DNA of 64,000 nucleotides from Ectocarpus siliculosus (lineage: Eukaryota > Sar > Phaeophyceae > Ectocarpales > Ectocarpaceae), in NCBI GenBank assembly GCA_000310025.1, contig FN647938.1, positions 557,861-621,860 on the forward strand, read 5' to 3'. The position numbers and the translations under genes are program-made. Within the stretch, counting starts at the first letter, position 1; each line of letters begins with the position of its first letter. A model generated the notes under the pieces. It was not told the DNA's origin. It was given only the letters and a program-made list of their open reading frames with translations, and did not search any database. This document shows, piece by piece, positions 12,104 to 64,000 of the stretch.

Positions 12104-12150
<47 letters not shown>

Positions 12151-12545
12151 CTTCACATTAAAAACCGTTCCGATCTCTCTCTACCCAGTACCTTCACATG
12201 TCCGTACTGATCCAACACTTGACGCGGTCGATTCCCGTGGTCACAGGCTAACTTACCCTAAAAAGGTACACTCAAATAAACTGGCACCGGGGGGTCCCCA
12301 AGTCAATAGAAATCAACGACAGATATTCTGGAGTCCTCCGCTCCCTCTGCGCGCTATGCGAGGTAACAACTTAGACTAGGAGTCAGCCTCACGGGCCAGA
12401 GAGAAAGAGGTACACCCCCTTGGTTCAATATTGGTGCTTCACACGCAAGCGGAGACAAGGCCATCTGACACAGAAATAGAGAGAAAAAAGAGCGACAAAG
12501 AGAAAAAAGAGAAAAAGAGAAAAAGAGAAAAGGAAATCAGGAAGA
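12100..12545. repeat. Dispersed repeat ending in (TTG)n, copy A
   Basis: Starts with a (TTG)n run to 12150, then about 360 bp that matches 17370-17740 at roughly 95 percent identity by eye, and ends in an A/G-rich tract. Read on the minus strand it finishes AATGTGAAGACAACAACAAC, so (CAA)n would be the 3' tail, as in some SINE-like retroelements. The same TGTGAAGACAACA word also occurs at about 11886. No protein is encoded. Confidence 0.6.
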
Positions 12546-14942: not shown

Positions 14943-17900
14943 ATGATGACGGCCGCCTTCGGCGATGAATCGGCTAGCTCCATGAGCCTTCTTCCGCCAA
15001 TTGAGGTACGTCCTGCTCTGGGTACCGTGCTGTACACGTCAACTTCAATTTCGTCCGCCGACCTCCATCGTTCGCGATGATGAGTAGGGTTCGTCATCCA
15101 GACTACCTCCCGTACTTACCGTGCCTCACCCAAGCGCCCATCACCCTGTCTGAGCATCATGCATAAGCTCTCTCATTTGAGGAGTATTATTTCTGCTAGA
15201 AGTACCGCGGGTGTCGGGTGTACAACTGCACTACACTGCTGTGTAGTTTAGGTCTGTGTTTTCTGCTTCACGTACTGCAGCGCAGTGCTGTGCCGTTGTG
15301 TGCGAAGACTATTACACAAGCAACGGCGGTGCCGTGAACGCGCGAAGTTCTGGTGGCACAGGCTACACTTGTTCCTGAGTCGTATGATGTGTCGCCGGTG
15401 CTCTCAGTACATTTTTTACGCCTGCATGTGTGGACGCAGTGGATAGGCCGCCATCCCACAATCCCTATATTCGCACTTCGGACCTCCAACAGATGCAAGC
15501 ACGGGCGGTGTGTAGTACGATGGTAGCAATATGCGTATGTACCAGCTGGGGGAGGAGGCGCCCATATATGACTCATTTTGAAGCTGGCCAATGGAACGAG
15601 GGGGGCATGTCGCGCTCAACTCAAGAGTCGCACTCTACTACTGCTGTACACTTTTTTTTCGGGTCCCGTTATTTGGTTAGGTTTCAATTTAGAAATACGA
15701 ACATAGAGGCAGTTGCCAAATTCTCATTTCGACTCTGCTGCACATGTATGGATGTGAAGCAACAGGAGGCCAACCACCACGCGCAAAACTCGAAAGACTA
15801 GTTATCATCGTACAAGTTTATCCCGCTGTGTGCGAGAAGTTCGTTTTTGCGACCTAGTTCTTCCATAGTATGCATACACCGCTGCGAAAAGACGACAATT
15901 ACGCTGCCCTCCCCCTTTTTCTAGTCGACCGTGGTCGTCGCGGTTCTTTACAAAGCTGTGAGGTTATGTTTACTTTCAACAAATGCTGCCAGCCACGGGA
16001 AGGCATGCTAGTTCTACGGAGATTTTATTTCAATCGTCGTGTGTGCCTCTTTACTTATTTTCTGACCGTGTGCGGGCTGGCCGCTACGTTATTATACATG
16101 TTACAGGGCTCTGGCGGCGATACCGGGGAGGATGTAGATGGAAACCCACGAGAGGCGGCGCGACTACTGGAGGAGGAAAACCCCCATCATCAGGTGCGAT
16201 GGAACTGTGCTTCTCTTTTTTATCTGCCGTGTGGACGCAAAGGATTATAGTATGGTACATGTTTTTTTTCTTGTGAGGTTTGCGCTTATTTCTTTTCTGC
16301 CGCTGAGTGGCGTTCCTTGACGGAGAGAAAGGGAAGGAGCAGCAGGAAATGTTTTTGAAGAAGGTCACACGATATCTTCCGCAACATGATCGGACGGCTC
16401 AGAGCTCCAGCCTCCTTTCTCAGAATCGCTTGCTACTACCTCTTGGAAGGTGATCTTGTGTCCATCCTCAAACACCCCTCATTCCTCTTGCTGTCCTATC
16501 CACACCCCCCCGCCGGCCCAGCCGTCCTACAACGGCCAACGCCACGAGCAGCAAGACGTGCCAGGCAGGCAACTCATGGAAGACAGGTGGCCCAGCGGAC
16601 AATACTCCTCCTTGACAACGGTACCACCAGGTGGTGCTAGTGGTGGCAGCCCCAACGTAGCTTGGCAAGATCCAAACACTACCACAAGTGCTGGCGAAGG
16701 AGACAGCGACGGCATGGTTACTCCCGGACAGGGCCAGGCCGGACTAGCCCCGCTTGACGAGCAACCTCCCCCGGATCCGTTTGCGATGGAGAGGCCGCCG
16801 ATCGCCAACGGCGGGCGGGGGGGGGGGGGCGCCGTGGGAGGTGAAATTCGCGCGAAGCCCCCAGTCGCACCACGGCCGGCAAGGTATAGCAGTGGCGTGG
16901 CTGTTGGTCTGGTAGTGCAAGATGTAAGATTAGCGTTGCCGGACTCCTGGTGGTCTGGCTGGATGGATGATCGTCAAGCGTTGAAATGAAGCTTTTTTAA
17001 CTGTACGCGTTTTAGGGCCGACGTCCAAAATAACATGAAAGGGTGGCGTCCGACGATTTTATGACTTCTCCGGGGTTGACCTCTTCGCTTGTACCGGCCG
17101 AAGCTGGTGGGCCTGGAGTCAGAACCGGCTTGTGTTGACATCGAAAAACTGGGCACGTGAGGCATAGCGCCGCCGCTCATCTGCTTGCGACCCAGCAGTG
17201 CCAGCCACTGCTGTACCACACCAGTAACACATGCGCTGGCGGGGTACTAACACCAACACGCTCCAACACGCCGTCGTGCCTTGGCCTCCAATGCAGCGCG
17301 TACCCAAAGCCCCGTCAAGACTTGGCCGCATTCGTTGCAAAGAAGGGGTTGTTGTTGTTGTTGTTGTTGTCTTCACATTAAAAACCGTTCCGATCTCTCT
17401 CTACCCAGTACCTTCGTATGTCCGTACTGATCCAACACTCGACGCGGTCGATTCCCGTGGTCACAGGTTAACTTACCCTAAAAAGGTACACTCAAATATA
17501 CTGGCCCCGAGGGGTCCGCAAGTCAATAGAAATCAACGACAGATATTCTGGGATCCTCCACTCCCTCTTCGCGCTATGCGAGGTATCAACTGAGACTAGC
17601 AGTCACTATCTATCATGGGCCGGAGAGAAAGAGGTACACCCCCTTGGTTCAATCTTGGTACTTCACAACGCAAGCAGAGACAAGACCATCTGGCACAGAA
17701 AAAGAGAGAGAAAAAGAGAGAAAAAAAAAAAGAAAAAAGAGAAAAAAAAAGGGTATGACGGAACCGATCGTTGCGAAAGGTGGGTTCTACAGGCTTATGA
17801 CCCCCGCCCCCGTATGTATTCTTCATGTTAATCTTCCGCTGTTCGCGCAGGAGGGAATGGAACCTGACCACGACCAAGCCGTCTCCGAAGCTCTCGTCCA

Positions 17901-58402: not shown

Positions 58403-61044
58403 GACATTGCCGTTCTTGTGGAATGATAGGAGTGTTAAAGCGAGGCTGGTCTGTTGCCTTTTAAGAACGAGGCAAATGGGCTTTTTGCTACCCTAGCCTC
58501 CGTTGTCGCTTCTTGGGGCGGCGGCGGTGGCTGCGATTAGCTTCCGGTGTTGCTTGCTTGCAGGAGCGTATTGTCCTGTTTTTGTGCATACATTGGTGTC
58601 TCGTTTGCATTATTTTATCCCATGCGTGTTGGTTGCAGGCTTGCGTGTGAGTACTTTTTTGGTGAATATACACAGGAGGAATACCAGTAGGCGGATCCGA
58701 AAGCGTTTAAATATTTTTATTCTTCTGTTTGGTGAAATGTTTCTCTGCGTGCATCGTGTTTCTCTTTGAGAAGAGAGACCACGATAGGCGGTGGGCAGAA
58801 GGGGTCCGTTTACGATGTTTTGAAACGCTTGTACTGCTTGGTTTGTTGGTTCTTGGGGTCCTCTCTCATTCCGATGCGTTGTAGACAGTCGGAGGATGTA
58901 GTCAGTCTGCACAGCAGTTGCACATATACGCGCGTTTAGTTTGTGCTTGTGTCTGCCAACCGAGCGCCTGCTGTGTTGTACAGTCCGTTTTATTGTGTCG
59001 TTCGAATAGGAAGGTGCGGAAACGGCATCCGCGGTGTTCTTTTTGGCGTATGTGCGAACCCCTGTCGAATGGAAGGTTTTCAGGCTGTTTTGCTTGTCAG
59101 CGAGGAGCCTGCCCGTTAGGGGGCGGCGTAGAAGTGCCCTCTCCCAGCGAGATTTTTGTTTGTTCTGTTTCACAATGTCTGGTACACATGCATGTTTTTG
59201 ATGTTTCTCTTCGGTGTTTTTTTTTTTTTGTGGGGGTTGATTCGAGTGCCTAGGTGAAGGTACAAGACAGCGAATCTAGTGCGTGTTTCCCTTGATGTTC
59301 AGACAAAGGATCAGCAGTAGAGCGAACAGTCAATAGCGTAGGACTTTGGCGAGCGCTCTCTCTCTATGTCGGCTTTGTTTCTACATTTGTTTTACAACGA
59401 CCATCCAGTGCTTGCAGTTCGTTTGGTTGAGGTCGCGATTGTTCGGTTTCTCGGAGCCTTGGTTTGCGCCGGGAAACTTGTTCGAACGGTACCTTGCGTG
59501 CCCCGCATGAGGCACGAAAGGTGTTGTTTCTTGCGAGACAAGGTGTGTATGGTTGTATGCTGTCGTTCCGGATACATGCAATACATGGGTGGTCGTGTGG
59601 GACCCAGTCTGTGCCGGGACCCTGTCAGGATTTTGTTTCTGTAGCCTTTTCCCTTCTGATGGTAACCGCGACGAGAGAGACGCTGTAACGCTTTGTAGAG
59701 TGCTATGGTAATTAGCGATACTGTCTGCTGTCGCACGGCGGTGGTTTGCCGTCTCTCTGCGGAGATATGTACTAGCTGTTGTACTGTTTTCTTGAATCGT
59801 CGCAGTAATGTGCCGGTTTTTTTTTGCGCGTACGACGTTTATTTCTGTTTGGAGGCTACTGGGCGCTGGAGTTCCTAGTAGCGAGATGAAAAATGCACCA
59901 ATCACTCATGAAAAGCAAGAAGCGTTGTGATTGGCCGGTGTGTGGCATCAGCTACGGAAAAGGAAGGGAGGAACTTGGTTTATTTTTATTATTTCCCCGT
60001 TTTTGTTGTGCGATTTCGCGCACAAAATAGGTTGACAAAGTAATAGGGTTGACCGGCATTCGCCTGGCCGCGTTTGTTTAGCGTCCAGAACAAGCTCAGC
60101 TCGAAATTCTCTTGGCTACAAGCGTCTCTTTTGTTCTTGGAAGTATGCTACCGTATGCATTACATTAAAGAATGACTATAATATGATAAACCGGAGGGAC
60201 TACGTTGAAGTCTACACTACCCTTGGAGTGAAACATATCGAGACAAAGTACTAATGAACACGACACGCGCTTCCTTCCCCCCGATTTAATTTCTCTGTTC
60301 CCTCTAGGGGATGAACCTCCTTTCACACAGTTCTGCAATGCACGTGTGTAATTGTGTACAACACTTGAGTTGTGTGGCTGTCCTCAAGAGCGGTCAAGCA
60401 ACGGAAATAATTGGCTATGTCCTACAGCAGTAAGTAGCCTAGAATGGTGCGTCTTGTGTCTCTGACAAGCACGTAAGAACACAAAGACTGCCCGTTCGAG
60501 ATATTACCAAAGTCGAAGGGGGTGTGTTGAAGTCCTTACAATAATAATAATAGTGAGTGAAGTGAGGGTAGAATAAGAAGCTGTCTGTAGTGGTTTAAAT
60601 TTATTTGTATGTGCACGCGCACGCGGAAGTTGCTGTTCGGTGTTCCTTCGCATTCAAAGTGCAGTAGTTAATCCTTTGTCCAGCACCTCTCCCCTCTCTC
60701 TCATCAACACGAAATCACGCATATATATCGTTCTCAATTGTACATACATACATGTGGCGGACACGGTGTTGTTTTTATTTTTCTTAATATGACACAACGA
60801 ATCCATCTCTATCAAAGAAAAGAGTCAGAGACAGATTAGCAATGAATTCATAGCGTCAGAAAAAGCTACCTGTCTGTATGTCTACGATTTCTTCCCAGAC
60901 AGCATATATATTAGGGACCTCTCCCCTGCGGGTAACAGGCCGTTGTTGTATTTTTCTTTCGTGAAAGTACTCGAAGTATTCACATTTTCTAGGTAAACGC
61001 CTAGTCTAGTGTTTGATATATATACAGAGAGAGGCGGCCCGCAC
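58403..61044. other. Intergenic, no supported gene
   Basis: AT-richer than the surrounding coding DNA, with only short frames. It holds a dispersed-repeat copy at 60760-60870 and ends at the TTAA that precedes the OTU/transposase-like unit. Confidence 0.5.
60760..60870. repeat. Dispersed repeat, copy 2
   Basis: Matches 10590-10720 in the same orientation, including the T-rich lead-in and the AATCCATC and ATAGCGTCAG words. The matching length is short and diverged. Confidence 0.4.
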
Positions 61045-64000
61045 TTAACCCTTACGTGACTACACCCCCGAATCGGGCATGTTAGCAGGCACGATAACTC
61101 TTATATGCGACAACTTTCGAACCGAATTGAGCTGTGGATACCTGCGTCGACGACGGCTCGACGGTACGACTAGACCGCTCGAAAAGAAACAAAGTAACGA
61201 CCGGGGACAGAAACAGCACGTCCCCTATACAGAAAATTGAAAGCCTGGGAGTTGCAATGCTCCGCAGCACCCTGCATCCCGCGCTGCTGCTGTGCTGCTG
61301 TGGACCTCAGTCCAGCACGCAGAAACGCGATAATGATGCTGTTTTTCCTCCTGCTTGTTGCGATTTTTCGCACGAGCGCTATGGACGGGGTTCCTGTGTA
61401 TCACGTTCGCAAGGAACAGGAGCTAGCTCCCCAGCCGGCTGCGTTGGGCCAACGGGTACAGCAGCACATCGATGGATCTGCGTCGCGCATCATTTGCAGC
61501 ACAGAATTGACAAGAGGTGGGAGGGTTATGGTCTTGCCCGACCGCGCTGGTGTGTATACCGTAAAGCCGGATGGCCACTGCGGGTTTAGTGCGATGTCCG
61601 CGGGTCTGCAGGTTTGCCTCGGTAGAACAAGGGCCGCCCCCACCCCAGAGAACATGAGGAGCGTGGTCGCCCGTCGAGCCACGGAACATGTTCTTGGCGC
61701 ATCCGGTGTTGAGGACTTGACAGCTGTACTCTCACCAGACCAGCTTGGGCGGGCCCGGAGTGTGCGTATACCGGATGTTTTAGGAGCTGCCGTGGAAGAA
61801 ATGACGGCGCCGGAGGATAAGACGGTCGGTTGGTTTCGCGAGAAAGCCCAGCTAAGTGCAACAACAAAATGGATTGACGTGACCTGGTTCTCTTTTCTGG
61901 CGTCGGAGTACGGGGTGAACATCATGTTGTGGGAGCCAAGCCCCACGTACGGCACAGTTCAGCCGTACTCAGCAGCCCTCACGGCAGGCATGTTCTTGTT
62001 CGAGAAAAAAGACAAAATGGACGAGGAGGGGGATCGCTGGGTGCATCTGCTCTATCGGAAACACGACGATCCGTGGGCAGCGCGCGAGGGTGTAGGTGAG
62101 GCAGGCCATAAACAGCACAACCACTTCGACCGTCTGCAGCTTGGACTCAACGTACATACTTCCTTCATCGATGTCGTCAGAGTTGCAAAGGAGAAAGCGC
62201 TAGGAATGGCGGCGCCGGTGCCGTCGGCGAGCGCCACGGCCGGGAAGAAAGCGCCAGGGTCCGCAAAGGTGGACGGAGAAGAGGTGGACGATCCCGAGTT
62301 CAGCATGAGACCAAGCGGCAGCAACAGCAACAACAGCAGCAGCAGCAGCCGGCAAGCGGAGGGAAAGGCTGCAGCGGGAAAGAAAAGCAAGGCGAAGATC
62401 GGGAGTAAGGTCGGGGTGAAGCGACCAACCGAGAGGCAGCCAGGGGACAGCAAGAGGCACAAGGCGGGGGGTGCACCGGGGAAGCAGCGCAAGGCGGTTG
62501 GTGTGCCGGGGAAGCGCAAGGCGGGGGGTGCACCAGGGGAGGGGAGGGGTGCCGCAAAGAAATGCAAGAGTACGCCGACGGGTAGGAGGAAATCGGTGAA
62601 GAGCAACGGCCAAGTAGACGAAGCCAACTATGATTCCGACGGCAGCATCGGGGGGGGGGACCACGAAGCGAACCCAGGGCTCCTTCGCTAGCATGTCGCA
62701 GAACGAGAAGAAGGTGGTGGCCGCCATGAAGAAGATCCAGGAGCTCAAGTACAGGCGGGCGTACTTGCTGAGCAACAAGAGGAGGGCGCGGGGTCTAAAG
62801 GTGGGTTTGTGTTCGTGTAGACTTTTCTCTTGGCATTTTCCAGGCGAATAGGCGGACCTAAGAGAAGACGACGATTTATGGTGGTGCAAAAGTTGAGTCC
62901 GATAAATAGTGCGAATCAATACTGCTGTAGCAGTTTCTTGCGTTTTTTTTTTTCGCTTGGAATACCGAGTAGAGAGTGCCCTATCAACGCTGAACAAACG
63001 CGTGTCTAGGTAGGCACTTTGTTTCGCCTCGTGTGGTCGCTAGTCTCTACCAAAAATAATCTTAGAAGTGTTGGTAAAAAGCACCTGGTTGCTTGCATGA
63101 TCATGTTGACGCCTCCGTGCCTGGCTCCTGTTGCTCAACACGGGTGTGGTTTCCAATGTTGGCAGGGGGGCAACGAATGTCGAGTTCACGATTCGGAGTA
63201 TGTAAATGCATGTGCGTGACCTGAACACCCTACTGGCCCTGTATGGTGTTACTTTTGATCGCCGTGTCAGTTTCATGTGAATCTCTCGCTCGCTCGATTC
63301 GTAGGTGTTAGTGACACCGTCGCCTCGTACGACTTTATTTTTTTTCGGATGATTGAACACAACACGGCAGGGTATGAATTGACACACCTGCCGCTCTGTT
63401 TCCGCTGTTTGCCGACGACGTGCTCAACCCAGCTCAAGGCCATACGCGACAGGGAGAAGGAGAGGCTCAAGAAAGCGGCAGAAAAGGAAAAAGAAAACCA
63501 GCTTCGGCCGCGGCAGGAGGTGGAGGAGGAGGAGCGACAAGAGAGAGAGGAGCTAGAGAAGCAGCAGCAGCAGGAGCAGGAGGAGTTGAAAGCTGAGGCG
63601 GAGGAGTACCCGGAGGTGGCGTGGACTGACCGCGGCATTCCTGACTTTGCGGGAACGACGGACCACAAGAAGAGAACCCGGCGGCAAGCGGTCAGCGCTG
63701 CTTCGCTGTCGGCGTCCGCGCGATCGAAGTTGCCCTCTCTCGATACCTTCATGGGCGGCCGCGACGAGAACGGAGAGTTCCCGCTGAGTGGTTTGATGAA
63801 GACGTGCTTCAACATGATGTTCCCCGACAAGGCAGTAGATCTTTTCGTGCAAAAGGTGAGCATTGGTGTTTTCGTGTGGTCGCATTCCTTATTAAGTTGC
63901 ACTCGAACAACTCAGTAGGGGGGTTGCACGCAAGTAAGAGACCGAGCCGTTATGCGTCGGACTTGAAAGTAGTTCCGCGGGAAGGGGGGGAGGGGGGGGG
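61045..64000 (+). mobile_element. Possible left part of a piggyBac-type transposon carrying an OTU protease
   Basis: TTAA at 61045-61048 is followed directly by CCCTTACGTGAC, the layout of a piggyBac left end (TTAA target, terminal repeat starting CCC; established for the family). About 285 bp later begins a protein with an OTU-like domain, and its downstream exon resembles the entry to piggyBac-type transposases. The right end and catalytic Asp residues are outside the window, so the call is inference. TTAACCC can occur by chance. Confidence 0.35.
61333..63855 (+). CDS. OTU-like cysteine protease domain with Lys-rich linker and transposase-like C-terminal part (frameshifted, 3' partial)
   Basis: The frame opens at 61237; start options are 61333 (MMLFFLLLVAIF, a signal-peptide-like stretch) and 61381 (MDGVPVYH). 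Numbered from 61237, the OTU core has PDGHCGF with Cys115 and Asp112, a hydrophobic strand EYGVNIMLW, and HNHFDRL with His296, the usual Asp/Cys/His pattern of OTU deubiquitinases. A Ser/Lys-rich linker repeats KAGGAPGK-type units. The frame hits TAG at 62689-62691. One base fewer in the ten-G run at 62650-62659 would instead continue it through KKVVAAMKKIQELKYRRAYLL to a donor after 62800, phase 0. The next exon, 63433-63855, joins in phase: a Glu/Gln/Lys coiled coil, then WTDRGIPDFAG and FPLSGLMKTCFNMMFPDKAVDLFVQ, like the region before TN-YA in piggyBac-type transposases. The donor at 63856 leads out of the window. Confidence 0.55.

What the first reader, a model, noticed from the sequence alone, without database searches (positions are those of the whole stretch)
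61045..63855. OTU protease domain apparently joined to a piggyBac-like transposase, beside TTAA-CCC
An OTU-like domain (DGHC, HNHFD), a Lys-rich linker, a coiled coil and a segment resembling the start of the DDE_Tnp_1_7 (piggyBac) domain follow each other in one orientation and in phase across an intron. Upstream, 285 bp before the likely start, lies TTAA followed by CCC. OTU domains are known in some other transposons, but a piggyBac-type transposase with an N-terminal OTU is, to my knowledge, unusual. If real, the protease could protect the transposase from ubiquitin-driven turnover (speculation).
Basis: partly seen in the sequence, partly recalled or inferred. Interest (0 to 1): 0.78.

Follow-up and report, generated by a model that had tools for sequence, protein, structure and literature searches.

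The report
Jumping gene with fused ubiquitin-protease-like domain
A recently active piggyBac-type jumping gene, probably in a brown alga, makes a transposase that appears to carry a ubiquitin-cutting (OTU-like) protease at its front end, a pairing I could not find described before.

Summary
The element starts exactly at the TTAA-CCC (61045-61061) and runs off the window. Sister copies (20 near-identical matches over the finding's stretch) supply the rest: 8.3-10.4 kb between CCCTTACGTGACT and its inverted copy AGTCACGAAAGGG (12 of 13 bases paired), with TTAA, TTAC or TTAT on both sides in 4 of 7 copies. Six exons with GT-AG sites and matching phases join the N-terminal domain to a complete DDE_Tnp_1_7 transposase (E=2e-32, profile 4-346 of 349). 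The domain stays with the transposase in a second lineage at 34-37% identity. Its OTU identity rests on ordered catalytic motifs and weak Pfam otubain matches (2 of 6 members, best E=2e-4); Pfam OTU, profile alignment and structure prediction gave no support. Eight related piggyBac places show no OTU match, so it was gained or lost within this family; an antisense companion gene is found in both groups. OTU domains in Ginger1 and Helitrons are known; with piggyBac I found no report. New variant of a known kind.

The parts
61045..61048 (.). TTAA target-site duplication, left side
   Evidence: sequence; of 13 left ends shown (13 of 15 loci fetched by place), 9 are TTAA, 3 are TTAG/TTAC/TTAT, 1 is GGAA
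61049..61061 (+). 5' terminal inverted repeat CCCTTACGTGACT
   Evidence: pairs at 12 of 13 bases with the 3' end of sister copy C30; single match in window
61333..62800 (+). exon 1: hydrophobic N-terminus, OTU-like domain, Lys-rich linker, conserved tail; the window copy carries a one-base insertion near 62666 that breaks the frame
61540..62160 (+). OTU-like peptidase domain (D80, C83, H264 of the predicted protein; Cys codon 61579-61581, His codon 62122-62124)
   Evidence: alignments of 4 and 6 sequences; Peptidase_C65 matches in relatives, not in this copy
62801..63432 (+). intron 1, GT-AG, phase 0
   Evidence: donor AAG|GTGGGT here, AAG|GTACGT in C472 and C474, AAG|GTGGGC in C187; acceptor CAG|CTCAA in C472, C184, C474, C74
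63433..63855 (+). exon 2: Glu-rich stretch and start of the piggyBac region, ending before the TNKY motif of exon 3
   Evidence: Pfam match of the joined protein starts at residue 613, in this exon
63856..64000 (+). start of intron 2; the rest of this copy lies beyond the window and reads N
   Evidence: donor AAG|GTGAGC; N run
60769..60877 (.). unoccupied relative of the insertion site of copy C456b, with one TTAA
   Evidence: joined-flank comparison
17349..17534 (.). unoccupied relative of the insertion site of copy C66 (a second one at 12126-12314)
   Evidence: joined-flank comparison

Best explanation
This is the 5' end of a recently active piggyBac-superfamily DNA transposon of a eukaryote (probably a brown alga). 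Its six-exon gene encodes a fusion of about 1,200 residues: an OTU-like cysteine peptidase, a Lys-rich linker, then a complete DDD piggyBac transposase with a Cys-rich C-terminus. Shown here: element boundaries, target duplication, copy number, catalytic motifs, conserved splice sites and phases, and linkage of the domain to the transposase in two lineages. Inferred: one transcript and one protein, OTU fold, peptidase activity. Most likely mechanism (inferred, about 45%): the transposase end binds the short inverted repeats and cuts and pastes at TTAA; the OTU end removes ubiquitin or a ubiquitin-like tag from the transposase or from chromatin and repair proteins around the transposition complex, raising transposition in a host that tags it.
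For: 20 near-identical copies over the whole query. Inverted ends, with TTAA, TTAC or TTAT on both sides in 4 of 7 copies, and related unoccupied sites. The joined protein matches PF13843 over 4-346 of 349 at 2e-32 and its transposase part matches piggyBat 9c0f at 2e-7. YDEQM, MDNYFTS, GGVDTADQ and a C-terminal Cys pattern are present. Splice sites kept in the subfamilies where they could be read, phases 0,0,2,1,2. OTU-like domain 34-37% identical in a second lineage, on the same strand and in the same order as transposase exons at C16, C122 and C187; at C16 domain and exon tail share one frame to the same donor. DGxC and the His motif occur in all six sequences read, in C74 and C187 across a frame shift. 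Peptidase_C65 in 2 of 6 members, best E=2e-4.
Against: PF02338 does not hit the element. hhalign of the 4-row alignment against three solved OTU sequences plus a typed consensus gives 2.4% probability and a score reached by 1 of 30 column shuffles. Structure models are poor (pLDDT 35 and 43); no OTU among the 50 Foldseek rows listed of 86. The domain evolves fast: omega 0.66-0.77, two of three bootstrap ranges passing 1, against 0.23-0.48 for exons 2-5 (exon 6: 0.68-0.74). C234, a lineage-2 place with exon tail and transposase, gave no OTU match, and C11:3879510 has an OTU match without a listed transposase. No RNA evidence. None of the 11 copies read is open in all six exons, several being cut by gaps or deletions. 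A hydrophobic, signal-like N-terminus is odd for a nuclear protein.
Confidence: 0.78

Rival explanations
1. Two separate genes in one transposon: an OTU-like accessory gene upstream and an ordinary piggyBac transposase starting in or before exon 2, not fused.
For: The frame upstream of exon 2 is open and holds an ATG in family A. The element carries another accessory gene on the opposite strand. Introns were inferred without RNA.
Against: Exon 1 has no stop before the donor in 4 of 11 copies; donor and acceptor are kept in subfamilies with fitting phase; the exon-1 tail after the Lys-rich linker is conserved in the far lineage right up to the donor.
Confidence: 0.13
2. The fusion is real but the N-terminal domain is a cysteine peptidase of another papain-like group (or an inactive relative), not an OTU.
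For: PF02338 not hit; otubain matches weak; a SidE_DUB match at 0.082 and 0.033; fold unresolved.
Against: Otubain matches in 2 of 6 members, best 2e-4; the alignment consensus matches the otubain model at the DGxC motif (0.055) while C472 matches its C-terminal part (0.0023), in the right order. DxxC, WxD, LLY and NHFD follow the OTU order as I recall it.
Confidence: 0.15
3. Chance motif matches in a repeat; no functional domain.
For: Between near subfamilies the OTU stretch is no better conserved in DNA than its surroundings (75% against 80-81% in the 5' UTR and 71-80% in intron 1).
Against: Protein match at 4e-39 to a lineage at 37% identity, where the DNA search listed only the exon tail and not the OTU stretch; an open frame through domain and tail at C16; full transposase downstream.
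Confidence: 0.03

Closest known systems
piggyBac superfamily transposons (piggyBac, piggyBat)
   Same: TTAA target, short CCC...GGG inverted ends, DDD catalytic core (PF13843), Cys-rich C-terminus
   Different: 8-10 kb, six exons, N-terminal OTU-like domain, Lys-rich linker, antisense companion gene; some copies flanked by TTAC or TTAT
Ginger1 DNA transposons (PMC2836005, passages read)
   Same: a DNA transposase carrying an OTU-like protease domain
   Different: Gypsy-integrase type core, OTU at the C-terminus, animal hosts in its table; the word piggyBac does not occur in that text
Helitron/Helentron elements with OTU (PMC2836005 and PMC6431247, passages read)
   Same: OTU-like cysteine protease in a transposon protein
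   Different: rolling-circle Rep/helicase elements, not DDE transposases
Otubain (Pfam Peptidase_C65)
   Same: order of motifs; weak profile match of relatives
   Different: the member whose score is printed lies below the gathering score; about 17-27 residues between LLYR/LLFR and the His motif, longer than in otubain as recalled; Cys followed by Gly and an aromatic
piggyBac families of the Ectocarpus TE survey (PMC12477816, passages read)
   Same: brown-alga piggyBac elements exist (table row DNA/PiggyBac: 4, 1588, 289, 0.48%; column heads not seen)
   Different: the word OTU does not occur in the main text; supplements not read

Membership tests
piggyBac superfamily | TTAA target-site duplication | tested here: met
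   of 7 copies with both ends read, 2 have TTAA/TTAA, 1 TTAC/TTAC, 1 TTAT/TTAT with the 3' GGG lost, 3 imperfect; 9 of 13 left ends TTAA
piggyBac superfamily | short terminal inverted repeats beginning CCC | tested here: met
   12 of 13 bases paired in C30
piggyBac superfamily | DDE_Tnp_1_7 domain with three catalytic Asp | tested here: met
   2e-32 over 4-346 of 349; YDEQM, MDNYFTS, GGVDTADQ read; that these hold the three catalytic Asp is recalled
piggyBac superfamily | C-terminal Cys-rich domain | tested here: met
   Cys pattern CMYPGC...CACEAFC...CKGCF read in exon 6; by eye, no profile test
piggyBac superfamily | precise excision restoring TTAA | not testable with these tools
   needs a living system; related unoccupied sites seen
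OTU cysteine peptidases | match to Pfam OTU (PF02338) | tested here: not met
OTU cysteine peptidases | match to otubain branch (Peptidase_C65) | tested here: inconclusive
   2 of 6 members, best E=2e-4; the one member whose score is printed has 18.6 bits against a cut-off of 24.3
OTU cysteine peptidases | ordered catalytic DxxC and late His | tested here: met
   in one frame in A, C16, C472 and C184 (the last two with stop codons inside); in C187 and C74 the His motif lies in another frame
OTU cysteine peptidases | OTU fold | tested here: inconclusive
   models too poor
OTU cysteine peptidases | cleavage of ubiquitin | not testable with these tools
   bench assay needed
Ginger1 | Gypsy-type integrase core with C-terminal OTU | tested here: not met
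   the only Pfam match of the joined protein is PF13843, and the OTU-like domain is N-terminal

The most novel reading that the evidence does not exclude
A piggyBac lineage captured an OTU-like deubiquitinase and made it part of its transposase to disarm a ubiquitin-based host control of transposition; its fast protein evolution beside a well-conserved transposase core is the trace of an arms race, and a hydrophobic signal-like start implies membrane passage or self-release of the protease.
Probability: 0.18. Interest if true: 0.78.

Novelty: new variant of a known kind. Interest (0 to 1): 0.52.

Why it matters
OTU and Ulp1 proteases have been joined to unrelated transposon proteins (Ginger1, Helitrons, Mutator; PMC2836005, passages), which suggests that removing ubiquitin-like tags helps mobile DNA. 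A piggyBac case adds a superfamily that is well understood and widely used as a tool, with related families in the same genome in which no such domain was found: a natural comparison that makes the question testable. The element also keeps an antisense companion gene of unknown function.

Tried and rejected
Profile alignment of the domain (4 rows) against three solved OTU sequences plus a typed consensus: 2.4% probability, score reached by 1 of 30 column shuffles. Two AlphaFold2 runs with 4 and 6 sequences: unusable; Foldseek on the second: no match at E<=0.001 and no OTU among the 50 rows listed of 86. Solved-structure sequence searches with the domain: none, or irrelevant chains. NCBIfam: none. 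PHROGs: one weak family of unknown function. IMG/VR scans with the domain alignment, the transposase core exon and the companion exon: no relatives, so no other species was brought in. Rejected: that the window copy is intact (one-base insertion near 62666); but the exon-1 indels, found in 6 of 11 copies, are single-base insertions private to each copy, so assembly or sequencing error is possible. Rejected: strong purifying selection on the OTU domain between near subfamilies.

Paper searches. Passages were read in PMC2836005, PMC6431247, PMC12477816 and PMC8204020; the others were seen in listings only. None of what I saw described an OTU joined to piggyBac. Papers outside the library, Repbase reports and supplements were not searched.

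Full report
The element. The stretch 61045-63855 is the start of a repeated element of the window's genome (G000, 189 Mb, 492 contigs). Searching that genome with the stretch gave 40 scored matches: 20 at 99-100% identity over 2,788 or more bases, 6 partial at 100%, 4 at 72-74%, and 10 short ones of 35-106 bases. Similarity between copies begins at or within a few bases of CCCTTACGTGACT (window 61049), and 9 of 13 left ends shown have TTAA before it. The window's own copy is cut: beyond the window it reads N. Seven of the 11 family-A copies fetched by place were followed to their right end, which is AGTCACGAAAGGG in 5 of 7 (C241 and C11 lack the GGG). Lengths are 8,275 to 10,426 bases, some including assembly gaps. 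The two ends of C30 pair at 12 of 13 bases. TTAA, TTAC or TTAT is duplicated on both sides in 4 of 7; the other 3 are imperfect. Joined flanks of C53, C66 and C456b find related unoccupied sites, some in this window. TTAC and TTAT pairs suggest a looser target than strict TTAA.

The gene. Six exons with GT-AG introns of phases 0,0,2,1,2 give a reading frame of 1,202 codons; this joined frame uses exons 1-3 of copy C53 and exons 4-6 of copy C66. Donors and acceptors are kept at the same places in the 72-74% relatives wherever I could read them (C472, C184 and C474 for different subsets, C74 for the exon-2 acceptor), and the exon-1 donor also in the far relative C187. The joined protein matches PF13843 at 2e-32 across 4-346 of 349 positions, and its transposase part matches the solved piggyBat transposase at 2e-7. 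TNKY, YDEQM, MDNYFTS, GGVDTADQ and a C-terminal Cys pattern are present. None of the 11 copies read is open in all six exons; C66 has a single stop, several others are cut by gaps or deletions, and 2 show only exons 1-2. The exon-1 indels (6 of 11 copies) are single-base insertions private to each copy, so real decay and assembly error cannot be told apart. Few substitutions separate the exons of these copies, which argues for recent movement.

The N-terminal domain. DGxC and a late NHF occur in all six sequences read (A, C472, C184, C74, C16, C187); C472 and C184 have stop codons inside, and in C74 and C187 the His motif is in another frame. The domain is found at 34-37% identity in a second lineage at C16, C122, C187 and C11:3879510. 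At C16, C122 and C187 piggyBac exons follow on the same strand in the same order. At C16 the domain and the exon tail lie in one open frame (603 codons) that runs to the same donor. Two exceptions: C11:3879510 has no listed transposase match nearby, and C234 has exon tail, transposase and companion but no OTU match. The C474 copy lacks the OTU stretch altogether (similarity starts at query base 1258).

Constraint. Between lineages pN/pS is 0.60-0.65, against 0.97-0.98 for shuffled codon partners; this is a rough measure, since pS is near saturation and shuffled partners are not a neutral model. Between near subfamilies the constraint is weak: omega 0.66-0.77, with two of three bootstrap ranges passing 1, against 0.23-0.48 for exons 2-5 and 0.68-0.74 for exon 6. 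Some of these relatives are decaying, which pushes omega up.

Is it OTU? For: motif order, and Peptidase_C65 (otubain) matches in 2 of 6 members, best 2e-4; the member whose score is printed has 18.6 bits, below the cut-off of 24.3. The alignment consensus matches the same model at the DGxC motif (0.055) and C472 at its C-terminal part (0.0023). Against or silent: PF02338, hhalign, two structure predictions and one Foldseek search, solved-structure sequence searches. I call it OTU-like. That the OTU triad is DxxC plus a late HY/HF is recalled.

Gain or loss. Eight further places hold a transposase core exon at 45-49% identity to this family (C137, C50, C91, C183, C16:1849347, C7, C98, C53:10168). 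None has an OTU match nearby in two searches, though a very diverged domain could be missed. A few more places are known only by the last exon and are not counted. The OTU-bearing lineages are closer to each other (61-66% in the core for C16, C187, C122 and also C234; 82-84% for C472, C474, C184). So the domain was probably gained once within this family, or lost in its sister; no tree was built.

Companion gene. A second gene lies downstream on the opposite strand. Its first exon is 70% identical in C184 and 41-46% in lineage 2 (C16, C187, C234, C122). At 38-42% it also lies beside the transposase, convergent, at 5 of the 8 places without OTU (C50, C91, C16:1853291, C137, C53:16447). Pfam gave no match for its first exon and only a weak one (DUF7340, 0.085) for its second. 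It is therefore likely the older partner of this piggyBac family.

Host. PF19114 (EsV-1-7 motif) gives 150 scored matches from 880 candidates; that this motif is greatly expanded in brown algae is recalled. The host is probably a brown alga; it was not named.

Mechanism. Cut and paste at TTAA by the DDD core follows from membership in the superfamily. The role of the OTU-like domain is inferred: most likely it removes ubiquitin or a similar tag from the transposase or from chromatin and repair proteins at the site. Ginger1's authors suggested a role of OTU and Ulp1 domains in transposition or repair (PMC2836005, passages). Self-processing is an alternative. The hydrophobic N-terminus kept in A, C472, C74 and C187 is unexplained.

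Novelty. OTU in Ginger1 and Helitrons is in print. Searches showed no OTU-piggyBac pair in what I saw of them; the main text of the Ectocarpus survey lists PiggyBac and does not contain the word OTU. I file it as a new variant of a known kind.

Noticed in passing
L015:1835-2737 (+), antisense to the transposase: Companion gene of unknown function, found in families A and C184/C472/C474, in lineage 2, and beside 5 of 8 piggyBac cores without OTU match; no Pfam match for its first exon.
   Followed up: partly
window 61333-61380: Strongly hydrophobic, signal-peptide-like N-terminus kept in four families (maximum 9-residue hydropathy 2.8-3.5); odd for a nuclear transposase.
   Followed up: partly
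L012 and L017, element ends: Target duplications TTAC and TTAT instead of TTAA, suggesting a relaxed target.
   Followed up: partly
window 60769-60877, also flanks of C53, C24 and C456b: Three copies seem to sit in members of the same short repeat family, one unoccupied member of which is in this window.
   Followed up: no
11 family-A copies, exon 1: 6 of 11 copies carry private single-base insertions in exon 1, which may reflect assembly errors.
   Followed up: partly
C27:3030317-3031855, C14, C25, C3, C456:1174084: Exons 5 and 6 are both reported in open frames of 603-606 codons, so intron 5 may be readable in frame in several copies.
   Followed up: no
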